Shown: positions 846 through 47,824 of the stretch, one piece after another
How positions within the stretch are numbered: position 1 is the stretch's first letter
Layout of the letters: each line of letters opens with the position of its first letter
NCBI GenBank assembly: GCA_947457335.1
Contig: CANGWA010000003.1
Location: 1 to 47,824 of the forward strand
DNA length: 47,824 nucleotides
From: Sphingobacteriaceae bacterium
GTDB lineage: Bacteria; Bacteroidota; Bacteroidia; B-17B0; Aurantibacillaceae
Direction: 5' to 3'
The notes under the pieces: model-generated
What the model was told of the DNA's origin: nothing
Database searches by the model: none
Seen by the model: the letters and a program-made list of their open reading frames with translations, nothing else
Program-made: the position numbers and the translations under genes

Positions 846-2381
846 GTGCCAATACTTGGTTCAATAATAAAAGGGGCGATTGATATTCGGTCACGCATCC
901 CCTCCAGAAAAAATGCCTACCGCCAACAGGTCAAGCAACTCAAACGGTTGCTTTCTAAAGCAGAGTACACCGCCTTTGGTATGCACTACAATTTCAGCGA
1001 ATTGCTTTTGCTGGAAGACCCTATCAAGGCGTTTCAAAAACGGGTTCCGATTTTTGATTACCAAAGTCTCTTCGATGCCTGGTGGCACCGCACGCTGAAA
1101 GGGGAGAAAGATGTGTGTTGGCCGGGCAAAATAAAATACTTTGCGCTGAGCTCTGGCACCTCCGAATCCTCCAGCAAACATATTCCCGTGACCAAGGACA
1201 TGATTAAGTCCATTCACAAGGGAACCATGAAACAAATTCTCTCCACCCGCCACTTCAACCTTAGCAAGGAACAATATGAAACAGAAATATTGTTTGTGGG
1301 AGGCAGTACGAATTTGAATTATAACGGCACGTACTTTAGTGGGGACTTGAGCGGAATTACGACAGGCACCCAGCCGAGATGGTTTCAAAACTTTACCTTG
1401 CCTGGCCCTGAGATTAGAACCCTTAAGGACTGGGAAAGCAAACTGCAGGAAATCGTTGATAACGCAAAGAACTGGGACGTAGGCTTTATATGTGGTGTGC
1501 CAGCTTGGATTCAGATTTTATTTGAACGGATCATCAAACACTATAACCTTACCACCATTCACGATGTGTGGCCGAATTTGGCAATATACGTGCATGGTGG
1601 CGTGGCCATACACCCCTACAAAAACAGCATAAACGCTTTGTGCAGCCACCCACTCATTTTCCTCGACACCTACATGGCTTCTGAAGGATTTTTAGCGTAT
1701 CAAGAGCGACCAAGCGAGCAACAACAAATGAAACTGATTACAGACAACAAAATGTTGTTTGAATTTGTTCCCTTCAACGAATCTAATTTTGACCCAGACG
1801 GTAACATTAAACCCGACGCGCAAGCATTGACGATTACTGAAGTGGATGAAAATACCGAGTACGCTGTGGTGATCTCTAATTGCGCAGGTGCTTGGCGTTA
1901 CTTAATCGGTGACACGCTACGCTTCACTGATTCCAATCAATGCGAAATATTAATTACAGGTAGGACAAAACATTTCTTGAGTTTATGTGGCGAGCATTTG
2001 AGTGTGGACAATATGAACCAAGCGGTGAAACTGGTGTCTGAAGAATTAGGCATTACCATCAATGAATATTGTGTGGCTGGCGAACCATTTGAAGGTTTGT
2101 TCTCTCACCATTGGTACATTGGTACCGATAAACCCGTGGATTCGCAATTAGTGCGGAAAAAATTAGACGACCATCTAAAAGTACTCAACGACGATTATGC
2201 TGTTGAAAGACAACACGCCCTCAAGGAAATTGTGGTAGAAATATTACCCAACCAAACGTTTATTGATTTTCTAGCGAGTAAGAATAAGCTGGGGGGACAA
2301 AGTAAGTTTCCACGTGTCATGAAAGGCAAGCACCTTAATGACTGGAATGCATTTATTAAATCCATAAAATCCCAGCAGTGA
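846..2381 (+). CDS. GH3 auxin-responsive promoter family protein (acyl-adenylate/amidosynthetase fold)
   Basis: 511 aa, GTG start. FALSSGTSES adenylate-forming motif plus YMASEGFLAYQ and WRYLIGDTLRFTD segments resemble the GH3 family. Confidence 0.85.
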   Translation: MPILGSIIKGAIDIRSRIPSRKNAYRQQVKQLKRLLSKAEYTAFGMHYNFSELLLLEDPIKAFQKRVPIFDYQSLFDAWWHRTLKGEKDVCWPGKIKYFALSSGTSESSSKHIPVTKDMIKSIHKGTMKQILSTRHFNLSKEQYETEILFVGGSTNLNYNGTYFSGDLSGITTGTQPRWFQNFTLPGPEIRTLKDWESKLQEIVDNAKNWDVGFICGVPAWIQILFERIIKHYNLTTIHDVWPNLAIYVHGGVAIHPYKNSINALCSHPLIFLDTYMASEGFLAYQERPSEQQQMKLITDNKMLFEFVPFNESNFDPDGNIKPDAQALTITEVDENTEYAVVISNCAGAWRYLIGDTLRFTDSNQCEILITGRTKHFLSLCGEHLSVDNMNQAVKLVSEELGITINEYCVAGEPFEGLFSHHWYIGTDKPVDSQLVRKKLDDHLKVLNDDYAVERQHALKEIVVEILPNQTFIDFLASKNKLGGQSKFPRVMKGKHLNDWNAFIKSIKSQQ

Positions 2382-12054: not shown

Positions 12055-14823
12055 TTAACGGGCTACCTGGAAGTAGCCTTTTATTGTGCGTTTGACGATG
12101 CCCTTTAAGCGGGGCTCGTACACATCACAAATATAAAAGAAGGTGCCTGAACTCACAGGAAGATTACTCATGCGGCTCACACCGTCCCATTGAAAATAGG
12201 GGTCTTTTGAGTTGTACACGGTATTCCCCCAACGGTCGTAGATGGTAATGTTGATGGAATGAATTTGACGCACCTTAATCGCTTTAAAGGTTTCATTCAC
12301 ATTGTCGTCGTTTGGGGTAAAGATGTTGGGTAATTCAAACTCGGGACAATTGTCAATACAATAATCCGTGACTTGTTCGCTCATGTTGCCCGACGAATCG
12401 ATGGCCACAATTTTATAACAACCTGCAATGAGTGGATTGGCATCGGGAATGAACTTGAGTTCCATCGTGGTGGTGTAGCTAGCCAATTTATTGTATGCTA
12501 CTCCTAACGTGGATTTAAAATACAAATCATAGGCCACCACATCGTCTGACCGGGTCGAGTCATTACAGGTTAACCGCACATCGTTCCATTCTACCTTCAC
12601 AAATCCCGTTTGACAATCGGCGCTAATGGTAATGGTAGGGGCACACGGCGGTATGAGATCTACAGCTTTTGCGCAGGCTTCTTGTGAACGATTGACTAAT
12701 GGATGCACGAGGGATGTGTCTGAATAGCGGCCCTCGCTTTCTACATAGTAGCAATAAGTGAAGCGATTAACAATGTTGTCGTTGTCTGTGTAGTTGGTAA
12801 GGCTGGTGGTTGCTATAACAGAGTAAGTACTGCTTCCAGGGTTTTTCTTGTAAACAGTGTATTTATAATTGTTCCACGGTGTTTTAGAACTCCAACTCAA
12901 TGTTATTTTTCGATCGCCCGGTGTTGGCGTCAGAAAAATAGAAGTGGCTTTTTGTGAATCGCCAATGTAATCTTCACCCGAGCTCAACCGCAAGGTATAA
13001 ACATGAATGGTGTCGGAGGTGTTAACCCCGCTGTGCGTAAAGGTTAAGGGTAATCCAAGAATGCTTTTTGCTGTATATGTTTGGACCAAAATGCTGCTAT
13101 TACCACGCCAATGAAGGACTTCCAGCTTGAAAGGTCCTTTGTAGACCGAGGTGTCGAGATTGTCTTTGTCTAGAACAGGTCGGGTCCATCTTAAACCAAC
13201 ACTGCCTGTTGCTGCGGTGCTGAGTATGTCCACATTGAGAATAACAGGTACGTTCCGTCGTAGCTTAGTGCAGTATTGGGTGCCACTATAGGTCACTGCT
13301 CCATCTTTATACACGGCAAGGACGATATAGGAATAATTTTGCCCCACTACTAGACCTTCACCATTATTGGTATCGACATATTCTGTGCTTGTCGCTGCCG
13401 TTTCTGCTACCAAGGTAAAGCCAAACGATTCGGGCAAGGAGGTTTGACAAGGAGAGGGGCTGTAGGTGGCACAATCATTTTTGCGATATACTTTAAACGC
13501 AACAATTGGATTGTTGGTGGGATTGCACGGTGCGCCAGTCCAGCTAATCTTAATATTAGACCCTTGTGGGGTAGCAGTCAAGTTTTTAATAGCAGGAGCA
13601 ACTACTTTGATGTTAAAGCTAGAGAAAGAAACCTGGTTAACGGGACTTCCCTTATCGCTTGCTTTAAAGGTTGCTTGAAAAGGAATACTTCGGATATGGC
13701 TGCAACTGGTGGGCCATTCGAATTTAGCTGTGAAACTTCCTCCAGCAGGTATGGAGCTAGACAGTGGCGCTAGCGATGCAAGAGGAACGGCTGTGTTGAA
13801 AGGCCCACCGCCTCCTTCGAGGGTTACCAATCCGCCTTCAGCATCTCTAACCACAACATTCTTTTGCACCACGGTTCCTGCTTCCACACACGTGTCTTTC
13901 GGGACCACAATTACAGGAGGTGAATTATTAGGACACGCTTCCACAATTACCTGCATGTCGCGCAGCACATACCCAATCAATTCATAATTATCCGACGTGT
14001 TCTTTCGCCATTCTTTTACAATGAAGGCGATGTTGTATTGTCCTTGTGTTTGAGGGGTGCACCAACTTAATAGTCCAGTCGAAGCGCTAATACCAAACGA
14101 CCCATTGGGACCCGGGTAGGGAAAGGTGTAGCCAGTTGCCGCCTCTCCATTGGCGCCGCGCGAGGTGGTAATTTCATAACTCAGGCTGTCTTTCAAATCG
14201 GGGTCGTAGGCCCCAGGGTTGTGCATGAAACAAGAATTTACACAAGCCTTATCCACTGGCGGAAAAGTAAATACTGGGGAGCTATTGGTGCCAGTAAAGC
14301 CATTAATAATGAGCAACGATTCAATGTAAAATGGCACATACAGGGAATTGGGAATATTCTGCACCTTGTCATTGCGATTGGGGTCTAACGAGCGAATCAC
14401 GTAACTACCGGGACCCGGGTAGGTGTGGGTGATGGTGTAAGTGTTTAGTTTTACACGGTAAGGTTCAATGCTGGTTGTTTGATTGATGATGATGGAGCCA
14501 CAGCCGATGGCCAAAGTGCCCAGGGTGCCGCATTTGCAACCACCCAGCGGACTACCGTTGATACGCGGGGCGATGCCTTTTTCGCCATCACCGAAGGAAA
14601 TGGTGTCAAGACAACGGTCTGCAATGCCATCTCCATCGTTTGTGTATTTTGTAACGGTGATGGAGTAGGTGTACACTTGCACGGTTACGCCGCCAACTAC
14701 TTTGGAAAAGGGAGCAATTCTCTTGTAGGTGATTTCACCGGCACGGTTGTGAGTGGCCAATGATAGCAAAGGCAGGAGGAGGATGGCAAGTAGGCACAGT
14801 AGGCGGTTCATGGTTTTATTCAA
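12055..14823 (-). CDS. large secreted protein with gliding-motility-associated (T9SS type B-like) C-terminal domain
   Basis: Signal peptide, Fn3-like repeats. C-terminus ELPNIFTPNDDNVNETF...ITIYDRWGNTVY...SGTFFYICDV...GYFQVAR. Confidence 0.9.
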   Translation of the reverse strand: MNKTMNRLLCLLAILLLPLLSLATHNRAGEITYKRIAPFSKVVGGVTVQVYTYSITVTKYTNDGDGIADRCLDTISFGDGEKGIAPRINGSPLGGCKCGTLGTLAIGCGSIIINQTTSIEPYRVKLNTYTITHTYPGPGSYVIRSLDPNRNDKVQNIPNSLYVPFYIESLLIINGFTGTNSSPVFTFPPVDKACVNSCFMHNPGAYDPDLKDSLSYEITTSRGANGEAATGYTFPYPGPNGSFGISASTGLLSWCTPQTQGQYNIAFIVKEWRKNTSDNYELIGYVLRDMQVIVEACPNNSPPVIVVPKDTCVEAGTVVQKNVVVRDAEGGLVTLEGGGGPFNTAVPLASLAPLSSSIPAGGSFTAKFEWPTSCSHIRSIPFQATFKASDKGSPVNQVSFSSFNIKVVAPAIKNLTATPQGSNIKISWTGAPCNPTNNPIVAFKVYRKNDCATYSPSPCQTSLPESFGFTLVAETAATSTEYVDTNNGEGLVVGQNYSYIVLAVYKDGAVTYSGTQYCTKLRRNVPVILNVDILSTAATGSVGLRWTRPVLDKDNLDTSVYKGPFKLEVLHWRGNSSILVQTYTAKSILGLPLTFTHSGVNTSDTIHVYTLRLSSGEDYIGDSQKATSIFLTPTPGDRKITLSWSSKTPWNNYKYTVYKKNPGSSTYSVIATTSLTNYTDNDNIVNRFTYCYYVESEGRYSDTSLVHPLVNRSQEACAKAVDLIPPCAPTITISADCQTGFVKVEWNDVRLTCNDSTRSDDVVAYDLYFKSTLGVAYNKLASYTTTMELKFIPDANPLIAGCYKIVAIDSSGNMSEQVTDYCIDNCPEFELPNIFTPNDDNVNETFKAIKVRQIHSINITIYDRWGNTVYNSKDPYFQWDGVSRMSNLPVSSGTFFYICDVYEPRLKGIVKRTIKGYFQVAR

Positions 14824-16690
14824 TTACGATCCGGTGTTGCAGTTGTGTTTGACCGCTACCGGTCACTTTCAGTATATAAACGCCAGAACTTAGTGTTTCA
14901 GTATTAAAAGAAAATTCAGACACGCTGGCTTTTACCAAATCGCGGTAAAGGGGTGTTATCAAACGTCCTTGTAAATCATACAGTTCGATGTTGAGGTACT
15001 CGGGACGGGGCAAATTAATTTCAATTGAAAAGCGTTTTGGAGCAGGATTTGGGAACACCTTCATGTCATTGGTTGCTGCCACGTTCTGTTCAGCAATGCC
15101 TACGTGTGTGCTGTCGTGGGTGAATATTTGTGCCACCCATGCCCCATGCGCCTTCGGGTAATTGGCACTGTATGCATAAGCGTAGTAACCACTCATCCAC
15201 ACTTCGCCTGGTTTGTTATAGCGGCGCTGTGAGCCGCTGTAGTCGCCCCAACGCTCAAGATTGCCCAGTAAGAGATCAACATAATTAAGGCCGTTTTTGA
15301 TGCGCAGTACGGGCGAAAAATTCCCGGCACCATCGGCTTGAATGGCAGAAATGCCCGTGAACACTTTTGGCGAACTGTGGTCAAAATTGATGACAGCGGA
15401 ATTGTCGAGTGGACCTACACCGGAGTAGGATATGTTCGGATAAGCAAAGTCCATCGTATCGTTCTTAAGTATATATCCAGTTACCGACGGCGTTGATTGT
15501 GGATTTGAAATAACGCCATAATAAACGCTGCAGAGGTTGTTGGCCGGGTTCTTCGTATTGTGCACGTACTGTATCCATCCATTCTCATAAAATGCTCCTA
15601 AGTTCCTGCAGTCGTTAGTGGCAAGCGACTGGGTGGCGAGGGATTGTCGTCCATCAGGCGGAAAAACGTAAGGGGTGGGCGTTTTCATGACCTTCGCCGT
15701 TACTGTTAGGCCTGGTGCTCCAATGGTATCGGTAATGTTCACCAAGAAAACGGAGTCGTTAGATGAGGCAAGGTTACGGTTGGATAAAAAGTACATATTT
15801 GGTCCGTAAAACTTACTCCCGCCTTTAACTGGACAAAGGTTACGAATGGCTTTACCGTTGTATTTGATGTTGGAATGTAACAAAGAGCCAAGCGGTTTAC
15901 CAGCATAACCACTGTCCTTGCGCATTTGCCACACAATGGTTTCTACGAAGCCAGTTTGCCACGAGCTATCGTTGTATAACAAATTGATGGATAGAAAAAG
16001 TTCCTTTTTCGACATGGCAATCATGGGATAATCTGACCATAGGTGGTTGTTGAGCGGGTTGCCGGGGAGGACGTATAAGTTCCATTGTCCAAATGGATCG
16101 TTGGTTTTCGTAAACCCGACCACAATTTTGCTCGTACTATCTTCTGCACCCACCATGGTAATGAGCGCAAAACGATCGTTATCTGGATCATATATGACCT
16201 TTGGATCAAACTCACGGTGGTAGCTGTTAACAGGATTGGTAAAGCCTGCTAAAGTCCTGCTGACATTTTGGTTGGTGGCTGAATTGCGAATGAGAATGTT
16301 GGTATTGACAACAGAAATAAAAATGGCAGAGTCGTTTACGGCCATGTCGTTGTCGTTGGGGGTGCTAACGCCCCAGCCATTTGCGAAGGCGCTGTAGCCC
16401 GTTTTTAATGCAGGCAAGGTATAGGAAGCTGCAGCCGCCTTTTTCATTTCGGTTTGCGTGGCCGGCGAAGAAGGCTTGTTGCCACCTTGACGGGGCATTT
16501 CGCGCACGAGTAAGTTGGGACTGAAGGGGTCTTGAATATTTCGAAACTCAACAACTGCGCTGGGTTGGATGGTGAAGTAGGTTTGTTTCGGCTGATTGGA
16601 TTTTGCCGACGGCGCACTTGGCTGAGCAGCGCTTGTTAAAACGAAAAAGCTCATTACCAATAAAGAATGGATGCGTTGCAAACCTGTCAT
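14816..16690 (-). CDS. secreted protein with T9SS type A sorting domain
   Basis: Signal peptide (MTGLQRIHSLLVMSFFVLTSAAQ). C-terminus KVFPNPAPKRFSIEI...IELYDLQGRLI...LSSGVYILKVTG. Confidence 0.88.
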   Translation of the reverse strand: MTGLQRIHSLLVMSFFVLTSAAQPSAPSAKSNQPKQTYFTIQPSAVVEFRNIQDPFSPNLLVREMPRQGGNKPSSPATQTEMKKAAAASYTLPALKTGYSAFANGWGVSTPNDNDMAVNDSAIFISVVNTNILIRNSATNQNVSRTLAGFTNPVNSYHREFDPKVIYDPDNDRFALITMVGAEDSTSKIVVGFTKTNDPFGQWNLYVLPGNPLNNHLWSDYPMIAMSKKELFLSINLLYNDSSWQTGFVETIVWQMRKDSGYAGKPLGSLLHSNIKYNGKAIRNLCPVKGGSKFYGPNMYFLSNRNLASSNDSVFLVNITDTIGAPGLTVTAKVMKTPTPYVFPPDGRQSLATQSLATNDCRNLGAFYENGWIQYVHNTKNPANNLCSVYYGVISNPQSTPSVTGYILKNDTMDFAYPNISYSGVGPLDNSAVINFDHSSPKVFTGISAIQADGAGNFSPVLRIKNGLNYVDLLLGNLERWGDYSGSQRRYNKPGEVWMSGYYAYAYSANYPKAHGAWVAQIFTHDSTHVGIAEQNVAATNDMKVFPNPAPKRFSIEINLPRPEYLNIELYDLQGRLITPLYRDLVKASVSEFSFNTETLSSGVYILKVTGSGQTQLQHRIVIE

Positions 16691-16864
16691 ATTTTTTATC
16701 TTAAGGAGAATAAAATTAATCAAAATAAATGTCTGTTTGAGCAGTTTTACACAATTTAGGCCCTACAAAAATGGGCCTTAGTCGCAAGGTTTTTATTATT
16801 AAATCGACAACTGGCAGGATATTTTATATAATTTTGGCCTTTTTAGATTTAGAATCCCTTCTCA

Positions 16865-35870: not shown

Positions 35871-36443
35871 TTATGACCGTGAAAAGCGAATCAAGGGCTC
35901 GTAGTCGTTGCAGTCGGCGGCCTCGAGACAAGCGGTGTAATGGCTGCGTAGGTCATCGGCTGAAGTGTTTTGAAGACGGCCCCAAGTCAACGGGGCTTCT
36001 CCGAAAAGTTTAGTAACCATCAAGTCAGCCATGAACCGCGCATGCCTGCCGTTGCCGTGCTCGAAACAACAAATGGTCATCAAGCCATGCATGTACCTTA
36101 CCGCTTGTTCGGTGGGGGGATAGGTGGCGTTTGTAAAACGGTCCAATGCATCGGCATGGAGTTGCCGCAGTTGAATGCCAATATTGGTCCACCGACAACC
36201 CGGAGACTGCTCCCGTTGACGGAATTGACCCGCTTGTTTCCACACCGTGCCGAACATTTTTTTGTGTACGAATTTGATAAAGTCCTCTTTCAATACTTCT
36301 TCAGCAGTGAACGGTTTAAAGTAAAACCACTCCAGCGCTTTTTCGATAGCGTGGTGTTCCATCTCTCTGATGGTGGCGGGGTCGGAAAGACCCTTGCGTC
36401 TCAATTCGCCTGTGATGGTGGGTGGGGCAACGTTTAATCCCAT
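35871..36443 (-). CDS. mobile mystery protein B-like Fic-fold protein with atypical motif
   Basis: IKFVHKKMFGTVWKQAGQFR, TYPPTEQAVRYMHGLMTICCFEHGNGRHARFMADLMV, LTWGRLQ. Overlaps its HTH partner by 10 nt. Confidence 0.85.
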   Translation of the reverse strand: MGLNVAPPTITGELRRKGLSDPATIREMEHHAIEKALEWFYFKPFTAEEVLKEDFIKFVHKKMFGTVWKQAGQFRQREQSPGCRWTNIGIQLRQLHADALDRFTNATYPPTEQAVRYMHGLMTICCFEHGNGRHARFMADLMVTKLFGEAPLTWGRLQNTSADDLRSHYTACLEAADCNDYEPLIRFSRS

Positions 36444-36895
36444 AAATAGCGAGGCATTTCGTTTATTAATCGGTGGGTGCGTTCTTGTATGGCCCCTGTT
36501 TTTTTCTCATCGGCCATTTCGGTATGGTCTAACAACATGTTGTGGTGCGCGCGCTCTACAATCTCAGTAGCGAGGACCCTTGCCCTTTTTTCAATCAGCG
36601 TTTGCAAGGTGTCGGTTTCGGGCACAATCGCATAGACGACTTTCATGTCCAAGGCCTTGGCCGCTTCTTGCAAGGAGGAGAGAGTAATGCTGCCCTGTGC
36701 TTCCCGCCGCTCAATGTCCCTCACGCTCTGCGCCGAAATATTCAAACGTGCCCCCAACTGCCGTAACGACATGCCAATCGACTTCCGAATGAGCTGAATC
36801 CATCCCCCATTCGGGACCTCTAGGTGTTGAATGGGCGCCAGCTCTTTTTGGCGGGCCACCACAAATTCAAGAAGCTGACGTTTTTCTGAATACAT
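36434..36895 (-). CDS. mobile mystery protein A-like XRE-family HTH regulator
   Basis: GGWIQLIRKSIGMSLRQLGARLNISAQSVRDIERREAQGSITLSSLQEAAKALDMKVVYAIVP. Confidence 0.85.
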   Translation of the reverse strand: MYSEKRQLLEFVVARQKELAPIQHLEVPNGGWIQLIRKSIGMSLRQLGARLNISAQSVRDIERREAQGSITLSSLQEAAKALDMKVVYAIVPETDTLQTLIEKRARVLATEIVERAHHNMLLDHTEMADEKKTGAIQERTHRLINEMPRYLWD

Positions 36896-36904
36896 AAGTT
36901 TATA

Positions 36905-36922
36905 TTCTAAAATATTTTAGAA
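36905..36922. promoter_or_regulatory. candidate operator: perfect 18-bp palindrome
   Basis: TTCTAAAATATTTTAGAA, 9 nt upstream of the HTH gene start. Confidence 0.55.
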
Positions 36923-46684: not shown

Positions 46685-47824
46685 ATGACGAACGTGAAAC
46701 GTACGCTACAATTTATTTTAACCTTTCTTTTGCTGAATGCATGGGCATTTGGGCAAGGGTGGACATTAAAGCTGAGCAGCACAGTTGAGATCCGCAACTG
46801 GAAATTAACGACAGAAGCAGATAAAGAAGAAAAGGGTTTGAGTGGTGCACAGATTGCTTTGTACCAAGGTGCGACCTTGGTGCAAAAAGTACAAAGTGAC
46901 GCTTATGGTGATTTTACAATAAATGTACCTGGCAACGGCGAGTTCATATTGGTGGTTTCATACGCGGGCTACAATACCAAGAAATTTTATGTGAACACGA
47001 AGGGCGTGCCCGAGGACATTCAGGACGAACGGTTCAAGCCCACATTTGCGATTGGTGGGTTTATTATGGCGAAAGCTTTTCCGGGGGTGGATTACAGTCA
47101 ATTGCAACAACCCTTGGTGCGCGTGGTGTGGCAGGCACGTGCGAAGAAGTTTGATGACGATGAGCAGTATACGGAGCAAATGTTGGGCGGCTTGTCGCGT
47201 ATTGCCGATGCGGAGAATGTCATCATTGAAAAATTTTGTGGTTTAAACCGCGAAGGCAATAAAGCCCTTGCTATTCCCGATTGTCCACTTGCTAAAAAAC
47301 TCTATGGTGAAGCCATTGCGTTATTGCCCGACGAAAGTTATCCGAAAATTCAATTGGAAAAAGTTGGCGAATGTTTAAAAGCCAAAGCCAAGGAAGAAGA
47401 AGCGAAAAAAGCCAAGGAAGAAGAAGCGGCGAAGAAAAAAGCGGAAGCTGAAAAATTAGCTAAAGAAAAAGCAGAGGCAGATAAGGTTGCAAAAGAAAAA
47501 GCGGAAGCAGAAGCCAAACAAAAAGCAGAAGCCGAAAAAGTAGCCAAGGATAAAGCAGACGCTGAAGCCAAACAAAAAGCGGAAGCCGAAAAAATAGCTA
47601 AGGATAAAGCGGAAGTTGAAAACAAACAAAAAGCAGAAGCCGAAAAAGTAGCGAAGGCAAAAGCAGAGACCGAAGCCAAGCAAAAAGCAGAGGCTGAAAA
47701 ACTCGCTAAGGAAAAAACGGAAGCAGAGGCCAAGCAAAAAGCAGAAGCTGAAAATAAACAGAAAGCTGAAGCTGAAAAATTAGCTAAGGAGAAAGCAGAG
47801 GCCGAGACAAAACAAAAGGCCGAG
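46685..47824 (+). CDS. exported TolA-like Lys/Ala/Glu repeat protein with N-terminal carboxypeptidase-regulatory-like domain, 3' truncated by window edge
   Basis: Not in ORF track. ATG at 46685 stays open to the window end (380 codons): MTNVKRTLQFILTFLLLNAWAFGQGW...GLSGAQIALYQGATLVQKVQSDAYGDFTINVPG... then repeats of AEAEKVAKDKADAEAKQK. Confidence 0.88.
   Translation, partial: MTNVKRTLQFILTFLLLNAWAFGQGWTLKLSSTVEIRNWKLTTEADKEEKGLSGAQIALYQGATLVQKVQSDAYGDFTINVPGNGEFILVVSYAGYNTKKFYVNTKGVPEDIQDERFKPTFAIGGFIMAKAFPGVDYSQLQQPLVRVVWQARAKKFDDDEQYTEQMLGGLSRIADAENVIIEKFCGLNREGNKALAIPDCPLAKKLYGEAIALLPDESYPKIQLEKVGECLKAKAKEEEAKKAKEEEAAKKKAEAEKLAKEKAEADKVAKEKAEAEAKQKAEAEKVAKDKADAEAKQKAEAEKIAKDKAEVENKQKAEAEKVAKAKAETEAKQKAEAEKLAKEKTEAEAKQKAEAENKQKAEAEKLAKEKAEAETKQKAE

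What the first reader, a model, noticed from the sequence alone, without database searches (positions are those of the whole stretch)
35871..36895. Mobile-mystery A/B (HTH + Fic) pair whose Fic motif has lost the catalytic histidine
In the sequence: two minus-strand genes overlap by 10 nt (ATGGGATTAA). The second reads VRYMHGLMTICCFEHGNGRHARFMADL (codons att tgt tgt ttc gag cac ggc aac ggc agg). From family knowledge: Fic AMP-transferases use HPFx(D/E)GNGR, and mobile mystery protein B, as I recall it, has FHHRLV.IHPFPNGNGRHAR here. By that alignment HPF has become CCF and the acidic/Asn position has become His, while GNGR and flanking residues stay intact. His to Cys needs two base changes (CAT/CAC to TGT/TGC), so one sequencing error does not explain it. 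Inference: this could be a decaying toxin, or a subfamily with altered chemistry such as a Cys nucleophile or a binding-only role.
Basis: partly seen in the sequence, partly recalled or inferred. Interest (0 to 1): 0.72.

Follow-up and report, generated by a model that had tools for sequence, protein, structure and literature searches.

The report
Toxin–antitoxin pair with a disarmed Fic
A bacterial gene pair of a poorly understood family ('mobile mystery' A and B) carries a Fic enzyme that has lost the histidine it needs for catalysis, and its partner protein has lost the glutamate that would normally restrain such an enzyme, so this copy looks like a defused toxin–antitoxin module that still keeps its reading frames and its DNA-binding half.

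Summary
The pair is genuine: mobile mystery B is TIGR02613 (147.4 bits, cut-off 124.4) and A is TIGR02612 (129.6, cut-off 122.6), with the 10-nt overlap usual in Bacteroidota. At the catalytic position 91 of 92 full-length relatives have His; the window has Cys (TGT). One detail was misread: the second Cys is normal (64 of 92 have HCF). The real departures in the motif are H125C, P/A/S128E and N129H. No other C.F..GNGRH[AS]R mystery B appeared in a scan of about 85,000 species genomes.

New here: mystery A has a nearly invariant C-terminal motif, [S/T]MxLE[D/N/E/G]Q, resembling the Fic-inhibiting [S/T]xxxE[G/N] helix of class I antitoxins. The window's A breaks exactly two of 21 conserved columns, that Glu (E123D) and that Gln (Q125T). 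The motif is kept in 91 of 91 loci with an active-type B and lost in 3 of 11 with a dead or absent B.

Best reading: a defused Fic toxin–antitoxin module, both frames still open. Altered (Cys) chemistry is unlikely. It is a single locus at about 42% identity to its nearest relative, so retained binding role versus slow decay stays open.

The parts
35871..36443 (-). Mobile mystery protein B (Fic/Doc fold), 190 aa, catalytic His replaced by Cys
   Evidence: TIGR02613 147.4 bits over cut-off 124.4; Pfam Fic PF02661 36.4 bits over 24; most deviant of 93 members at conserved columns, 17 of 56
36036..36074 (-). Fic motif, residues 124-136: I-C-C-F-E-H-G-N-G-R-H-A-R (family I-H-C/P-F-x-N-G-N-G-R-H-S/A-R)
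   Evidence: Column counts over 92 relatives
36069..36071 (-). Codon TGT (Cys125) in place of the catalytic His (CAT/CAC)
   Evidence: H in 91 of 92 relatives, R in one; codon counts
36057..36059 (-). Codon CAC (His129) at the metal/phosphate position, Asn in the family
   Evidence: N 90, D 1, S 1 of 92
36434..36895 (-). Mobile mystery protein A, HTH_3 DNA-binding protein with putative Fic-inhibiting C-terminal motif, 153 aa
   Evidence: TIGR02612 129.6 bits over cut-off 122.6; HTH_3 31.4 bits over 23
36521..36541 (-). Degraded antitoxin motif in A, residues 119-125 N-M-L-L-D-H-T (family [S/T/N]-M-x-L-E-[D/E/N/G]-Q); E123D and Q125T
   Evidence: M, L, E, Q are 88/88 in relatives; the window's only violations among 21 columns conserved at 90% or more
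36434..36443 (-). 10-nt overlap ATGGGATTAA between A stop and B start
   Evidence: Same -10 overlap in nearly all Bacteroidota members
36895..36910 (-). Residual mystery-A operator-like site TTAGAATATAAACTTA overlapping the A start codon
   Evidence: 10.7 bits in the family register (-15), shuffles 95th percentile 8.7; best match to the family site in the whole window, 2 mismatches
36905..36922 (.). Perfect 18-bp palindrome TTCTAAAATATTTTAGAA just upstream of A, not of the family operator type

Best explanation
The pair is a defused member of the mobile mystery A/B family, which I read as a class I-type Fic toxin-antitoxin module: A is an HTH autoregulator whose C-terminal [S/T]MxLE[D/N]Q motif is inferred to act as the Fic-inhibiting helix, and B is a Fic enzyme. 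In this genome B lost catalysis (H125C at the general base, N129H at the metal/phosphate position, plus changes at R120 and V122) while keeping most fold residues and the GNGRxxR phosphate nest. With no activity left to restrain, A's inhibitory Glu and Gln drifted (E123D, Q125T). Shown: family membership, the substitutions, their rarity, the joint change in both proteins, open frames, one surviving operator-like site. Inferred: that the motif in A is an inhibitory helix, that B is catalytically dead, the order of events, and that what remains is at most a DNA-binding or complex-forming role under relaxed constraint.
For: H125 is H in 91 of 92 and C only here; N129 is N in 90 of 92. B violates 17 of 56 columns conserved at 90%, the most of 93 members, median 1, and has the longest terminal branch of 85, 1.56 against 0.79 for its A. 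A violates 2 of 21, both in the MxLExQ motif whose four residues are 88/88 elsewhere (chance that both fall there 0.029). Motif lost in 0 of 91 loci with His-bearing full-length B, in 3 of 11 with B dead or absent (window, solo A L213, A-B fusion L221): p = 0.001, or 0.009 without the window (counts corrected by hand). B is broken by stop or deletion with A whole in four loci (L038, L069, L080, L113), while A broken with B whole was never seen. The Einh-R2 salt bridge of class I antitoxins is described in PMC5033356 and PMC3667792; R136 (R2) is 92/92.
Against: The match of A's motif to [S/T]xxxE[G/N] is by motif only: no Pfam or PDB hit links A to VbhA or EcFicA, and the residue after Glu is mostly D/E rather than G/N. 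E to D is a mild change. A substituted His need not mean zero activity: PMC4454073 reports a Doc clade with Gln at this position and residual activity of a His-to-Ala IbpA. Only one such locus is known, and L047 (His to Arg) and L049 keep an intact A motif.
Confidence: 0.7

Rival explanations
1. Catalytically dead B is kept for binding: it stays in complex with A (for instance as co-repressor of the operon) or binds a target or nucleotide through the intact GNGR nest. This is a sub-case of the best explanation, with selection to retain the protein.
For: The frame is open over 190 codons although 17 conserved residues changed: neutral simulation gives 1-5% chance of no stop, before counting frameshifts. 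Codon usage is like that of A and within the range of the window's other genes. Phosphate-nest residues are kept. One operator-like site is kept. Bartonella BepC, with a non-canonical motif and no known enzymatic activity, binds and relocates GEF-H1 (PMC8401265).
Against: Two normally invariant Trp (W70Q, W102R) and much of the N-terminal block also changed, which looks like general relaxation. No close homologue exists to test selection (dN/dS).
Confidence: 0.35
2. Passive decay: the toxin was inactivated by mutation and the gene is drifting, with frame-breaking changes not yet fixed. Also a sub-case of the best explanation.
For: B loss with A retained is recurrent in the family (L038, L069, L080, L113; L204 without B). 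B is the most deviant member. The operator array has lost its other sites.
Against: Open frame and two in-frame length changes after long divergence. The antitoxin motif had time to drift while both frames stayed open.
Confidence: 0.35
3. Altered chemistry: Cys125 (or His129) takes part in a new catalytic activity.
For: GNGRHAR, which would hold a nucleotide, is intact; Cys and His are chemically capable residues; a Gln-bearing Doc clade is suspected to be active (PMC4454073).
Against: No clade: zero other members with Cys in about 85,000 species genomes. The putative restraining Glu in A is lost. Other conserved positions are lost as well.
Confidence: 0.06
4. Sequencing or assembly error in a draft assembly.
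For: The genome is a draft of 317 contigs, 85.8% complete; reads are not available.
Against: Two base changes at the codon, several neighbouring non-synonymous changes, an open frame, and a matching change in the partner gene.
Confidence: 0.03

Closest known systems
[quoted passage not shown]
   Same: Both above curated cut-offs; same gene order, strand and 10-nt overlap; Fic motif frame HxFxNGNGRHxR otherwise kept
   Different: His125 to Cys, Asn129 to His in B; Glu123 to Asp and Gln125 to Thr in A; operator array reduced to one weak site
Class I Fic toxin-antitoxin modules (VbhTA, EcFicTA)
   Same: Antitoxin gene directly upstream; a motif like [S/T]xxxE[G/N] in the family's A and the R2 arginine in B
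   Different: A also carries an HTH domain; no detectable homology of A to VbhA/EcFicA; in the window the Glu is lost
Doc clade D2 with Gln in place of His (PMC4454073)
   Same: Replacement of the catalytic His within a Fic/Doc protein
   Different: That is a clade of 45 sequences with Q and GNKR; here it is one sequence with C and GNGR
Campylobacter fetus Fic2 (PMC5651007) and EcFicT (PMC5033356)
   Same: Fic proteins with degenerate motifs
   Different: Fic2 keeps the catalytic His, which it needs for toxicity; EcFicT's antitoxin keeps its inhibitory motif (SRRLEG)

Membership tests
Mobile mystery protein B (TIGR02613) | Score above the curated cut-off | tested here: met
   147.4 bits vs 124.4
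Mobile mystery protein B (TIGR02613) | Next to mystery A | tested here: met
   A directly upstream, 129.6 vs 122.6 bits
Mobile mystery protein B (TIGR02613) | Catalytic His in HxFxNGNGR (near-invariant in the family; membership is defined by the profile score, not by this residue) | tested here: not met
   Cys125; H in 91 of 92 relatives
Mobile mystery protein A (TIGR02612) | Score above the curated cut-off and HTH_3 domain | tested here: met
Class I Fic toxin-antitoxin module | Small antitoxin gene immediately upstream of fic | tested here: met
Class I Fic toxin-antitoxin module | Inhibitory [S/T]xxxE[G/N] motif in the antitoxin | tested here: not met
   Family has [S/T/N]MxLE[D/E/N/G]Q; window has NMLLDHT
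Class I Fic toxin-antitoxin module | HxFx(D/E)GNGRxxR in the toxin | tested here: not met
   CCFEHGNGRHAR; both Arg kept, His and acidic position not
Class I Fic toxin-antitoxin module | Toxicity neutralised by the partner | not testable with these tools
   needs expression experiments
Active Fic AMP-transferase | Transfer of AMP to a target | not testable with these tools
   predicted absent from sequence only

The most novel reading that the evidence does not exclude
Mobile mystery A/B is a class I-like Fic toxin-antitoxin system in which the antitoxin is also the HTH repressor of a phased (33-bp) operator array, and this locus is a natural double mutant in which the toxin's catalytic base and the antitoxin's inhibitory Glu were lost together, leaving a non-catalytic Fic-repressor complex that is still maintained.
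Probability: 0.3. Interest if true: 0.6.

Novelty: new variant of a known kind. Interest (0 to 1): 0.42.

Why it matters
The mobile mystery A/B family is widespread and was named for lack of a function. The paired loss in this locus, together with the near-invariance of MxLExQ in A, gives a concrete and cheap hypothesis for how the whole family works (A restrains B through an inhibitory Glu and represses the operon through a 33-bp-spaced operator). The locus itself is a natural test of what remains useful when a Fic toxin is disarmed. If the motif reading is wrong, what is left is one more degenerate Fic protein.

Tried and rejected
Close relatives: the genome-wide scan with B found none and the genus scan gave only about 40% identity, so no dN/dS. 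IMG/VR scans with B failed five times with a machine error, as did one pattern scan of it. Phage records hold no match. The four C.F..GNGRH[AS]R hits in 85,000 genomes are out-of-family chance matches. Considered and dropped: His129 as a displaced catalytic base (wrong position); a compensating frameshift around the motif (motif and flap align without gaps; other frames, read by eye, give nothing alike); the N-terminal TRGEL block of family B as an inhibitory helix (the -4 residue is variable, so the A motif fits better). Synteny of the insertion site is not informative: relatives have other genes upstream of dus.

Full report
OBSERVATION. B (35871-36443, minus) matches TIGR02613 mob_myst_B at 147.4 bits (cut-off 124.4) and Pfam Fic at 36.4 bits (cut-off 24); A (36434-36895, minus) matches TIGR02612 mob_myst_A at 129.6 bits (cut-off 122.6) and HTH_3. 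B is the only member in its own genome, a draft of 2.75 Mb in 317 contigs. The flanking genes are ordinary chromosome: polA, a tRNA-dihydrouridine synthase, a low-molecular-weight phosphotyrosine phosphatase, a glyoxalase-type protein and an aminotransferase-fold enzyme.

WHAT THE MOTIF REALLY SHOWS. From 1,993 searched genomes (mostly Bacteroidota) plus three plasmids I assembled 93 full-length B proteins. At position 125, 91 of the 92 relatives have His, one has Arg (L047), the window has Cys. Position 126 is Cys in 64 of 92, so the second C of 'CCF' is the family norm. Position 129 is Asn in 90 of 92; the window has His. F127, G130, N131, R133 and R136 are invariant, G132 is 91 of 92, and all of them are kept. 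A scan of about 85,000 species genomes for C.F..GNGRH[AS]R gave four matches, none in a Fic protein. The pattern requires an Ala or a TCN Ser codon and the scan may leave out near relatives of the window, so it is a strong but not complete negative. The codon is TGT against CAT/CAC in relatives. CAT to CGT to TGT, two transitions, is a possible path, and CGT is the codon in L047; this is inference.

THE PROTEIN IS UNUSUALLY DEVIANT. At columns conserved at 90% or more, window B departs at 17 of 56, the most of 93 members (next 13, a Ruegeria plasmid copy; median 1). The departures include G7, E24, L25, Q30 in the N-terminal block, W70, K79 and N80 (flap region), W102, R120, V122, H125, N129. 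Its terminal branch is the longest of 85 (1.56), twice that of its A (0.79); the B/A ratio is second highest of 60. The nearest relative shares about 42%. Still, the frame is open. Starting from four relatives and mutating neutrally until 17 conserved residues had changed left no stop in only 1-5% of runs, frameshifts not counted. Codon usage of A and B is alike, lower than the average of the window's long genes but within their range. So unconstrained drift alone is an uncomfortable account of all the divergence, though a late loss of constraint is compatible. A direct comparison of violation rates (B 17/56, A 2/21) is not significant by itself (p = 0.08).

THE PARTNER CHANGED TOO. In 88 relatives of A only five columns are wholly invariant: M120, L122, E123, Q125 and W152. 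Four of them form one motif, R[TS]xx[ST/N]MxLE[D/E/N/G]Q. It resembles the [S/T]xxxE[G/N] motif of the inhibitory helix of Fic antitoxins, for instance SRRLEG in EcFicA, whose Glu makes a salt bridge to the last Arg of the Fic motif (PMC5033356; PMC3667792). Window A has NMLLDHT: E123D and Q125T, its only two violations among 21 columns conserved at 90% (chance that both fall in the motif 0.029). The conserved columns of the DNA-binding part are not hit.

IS THE LINK BETWEEN THE TWO LOSSES MORE THAN COINCIDENCE? I sorted loci by B state. The script mis-sorted L136, L147 and L154 (long upstream frames; they have full His-bearing B) and counted as lost L104, where both genes are broken but the motif remains in a fragment. 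Corrected by hand: motif intact in 91 of 91 loci with His-bearing full-length B; lost in 3 of 11 loci with dead or absent B (the window; L213, a solo A reading NATQALEASA; L221, a deletion that fuses the HTH half of A to the end of B). Fisher p = 0.001, without the window 0.009. This is a post hoc comparison with small numbers and shared ancestry, so it is suggestive. Solo or recently orphaned A genes with intact motif also exist (L193, L204), as do loci with B broken by a stop or deletion and A whole (L038, L069, L080, L113). The reverse, A broken with B whole, was not seen, as expected if B is toxic without A.

MECHANISM. Most likely (0.7) this is a defused Fic toxin-antitoxin module. From established knowledge of Fic enzymes, catalysis needs the His as general base and the D/E/N position for metal and phosphate; both are replaced. 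Loss of activity would remove the need for the inhibitory Glu in A, which then drifted. If B were active with a new chemistry, one would expect the restraint in A to be kept; that argues against the Cys-nucleophile idea but does not exclude it. Whether the remaining complex still does something (repression, binding) or is on its way out I cannot decide; I put these at about equal odds. In the literature held here, TIGR02612 has been called an antitoxin next to a fic gene in a cas locus (PMC3936711) and TIGR02613 has been listed among Tn7 cargo (PMC8649781); I found no functional study of the family.

OPERATOR ARRAY (SIDE RESULT). Upstream of A in most relatives lies a palindrome, consensus TAAGGTTATAACCTTA, repeated at 32-33 bp, typically three copies, the last one touching the A start codon; 78 of 89 loci have at least one site and 51 have three or more, against 0.17 sites expected per shuffled upstream region. 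The window keeps one weak site in register (10.7 bits; 36895-36910), the best match in the whole window, and has lost the two others. This fits A being the autoregulator of the operon, and fits partial decay of the control region here.

COMPARISON. By profile the pair belongs to TIGR02612/TIGR02613. It does not meet the active-site definition of a Fic AMP-transferase nor, in the window, the antitoxin motif of class I Fic modules. Replacement of the catalytic His is known in a Gln-bearing Doc clade (PMC4454073), so a His-less Fic protein as such is not new. A matched loss in toxin and antitoxin was not described in what I could search.

Noticed in passing
Upstream of mystery A in relatives, e.g. 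L079, L055, L052, L003 (positions about -81, -48, -15 from the A start): A phased array of palindromic sites (consensus TAAGGTTATAACCTTA, spacing 33 or 32 bp) precedes the A gene in most loci, the last site touching the start codon; probably the operator of mystery A. No description found in the papers held.
   Followed up: partly
Mystery A proteins, C-terminal part (window A residues 115-125; window 36521-36553): The most conserved element of mystery A is MxLExQ rather than the HTH; it resembles the Fic-inhibiting antitoxin motif.
   Followed up: yes
L047 (G297): A second full-length mystery B without the catalytic His (Arg, codon CGT), otherwise normal, with intact A motif.
   Followed up: partly
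L049 (G145): A full-length mystery B with HCFPSGNSR (N129S, G132S, H119S), another probable inactive copy with intact A motif.
   Followed up: partly
L221, ORF 1219-1662 (+): A deletion fuses the HTH half of mystery A to the C-terminal end of mystery B in one frame.
   Followed up: partly
window 36905-36922: Perfect 18-bp palindrome TTCTAAAATATTTTAGAA just upstream of A, unlike the family operator.
   Followed up: no
window 47438-47802: Tandem repeat array, period 54/108 bp, near the window end.
   Followed up: no
window 12055-14823 and 14816-16723: Two overlapping genes with type IX secretion C-terminal domains (CHU_C and Por_Secre_tail).
   Followed up: no
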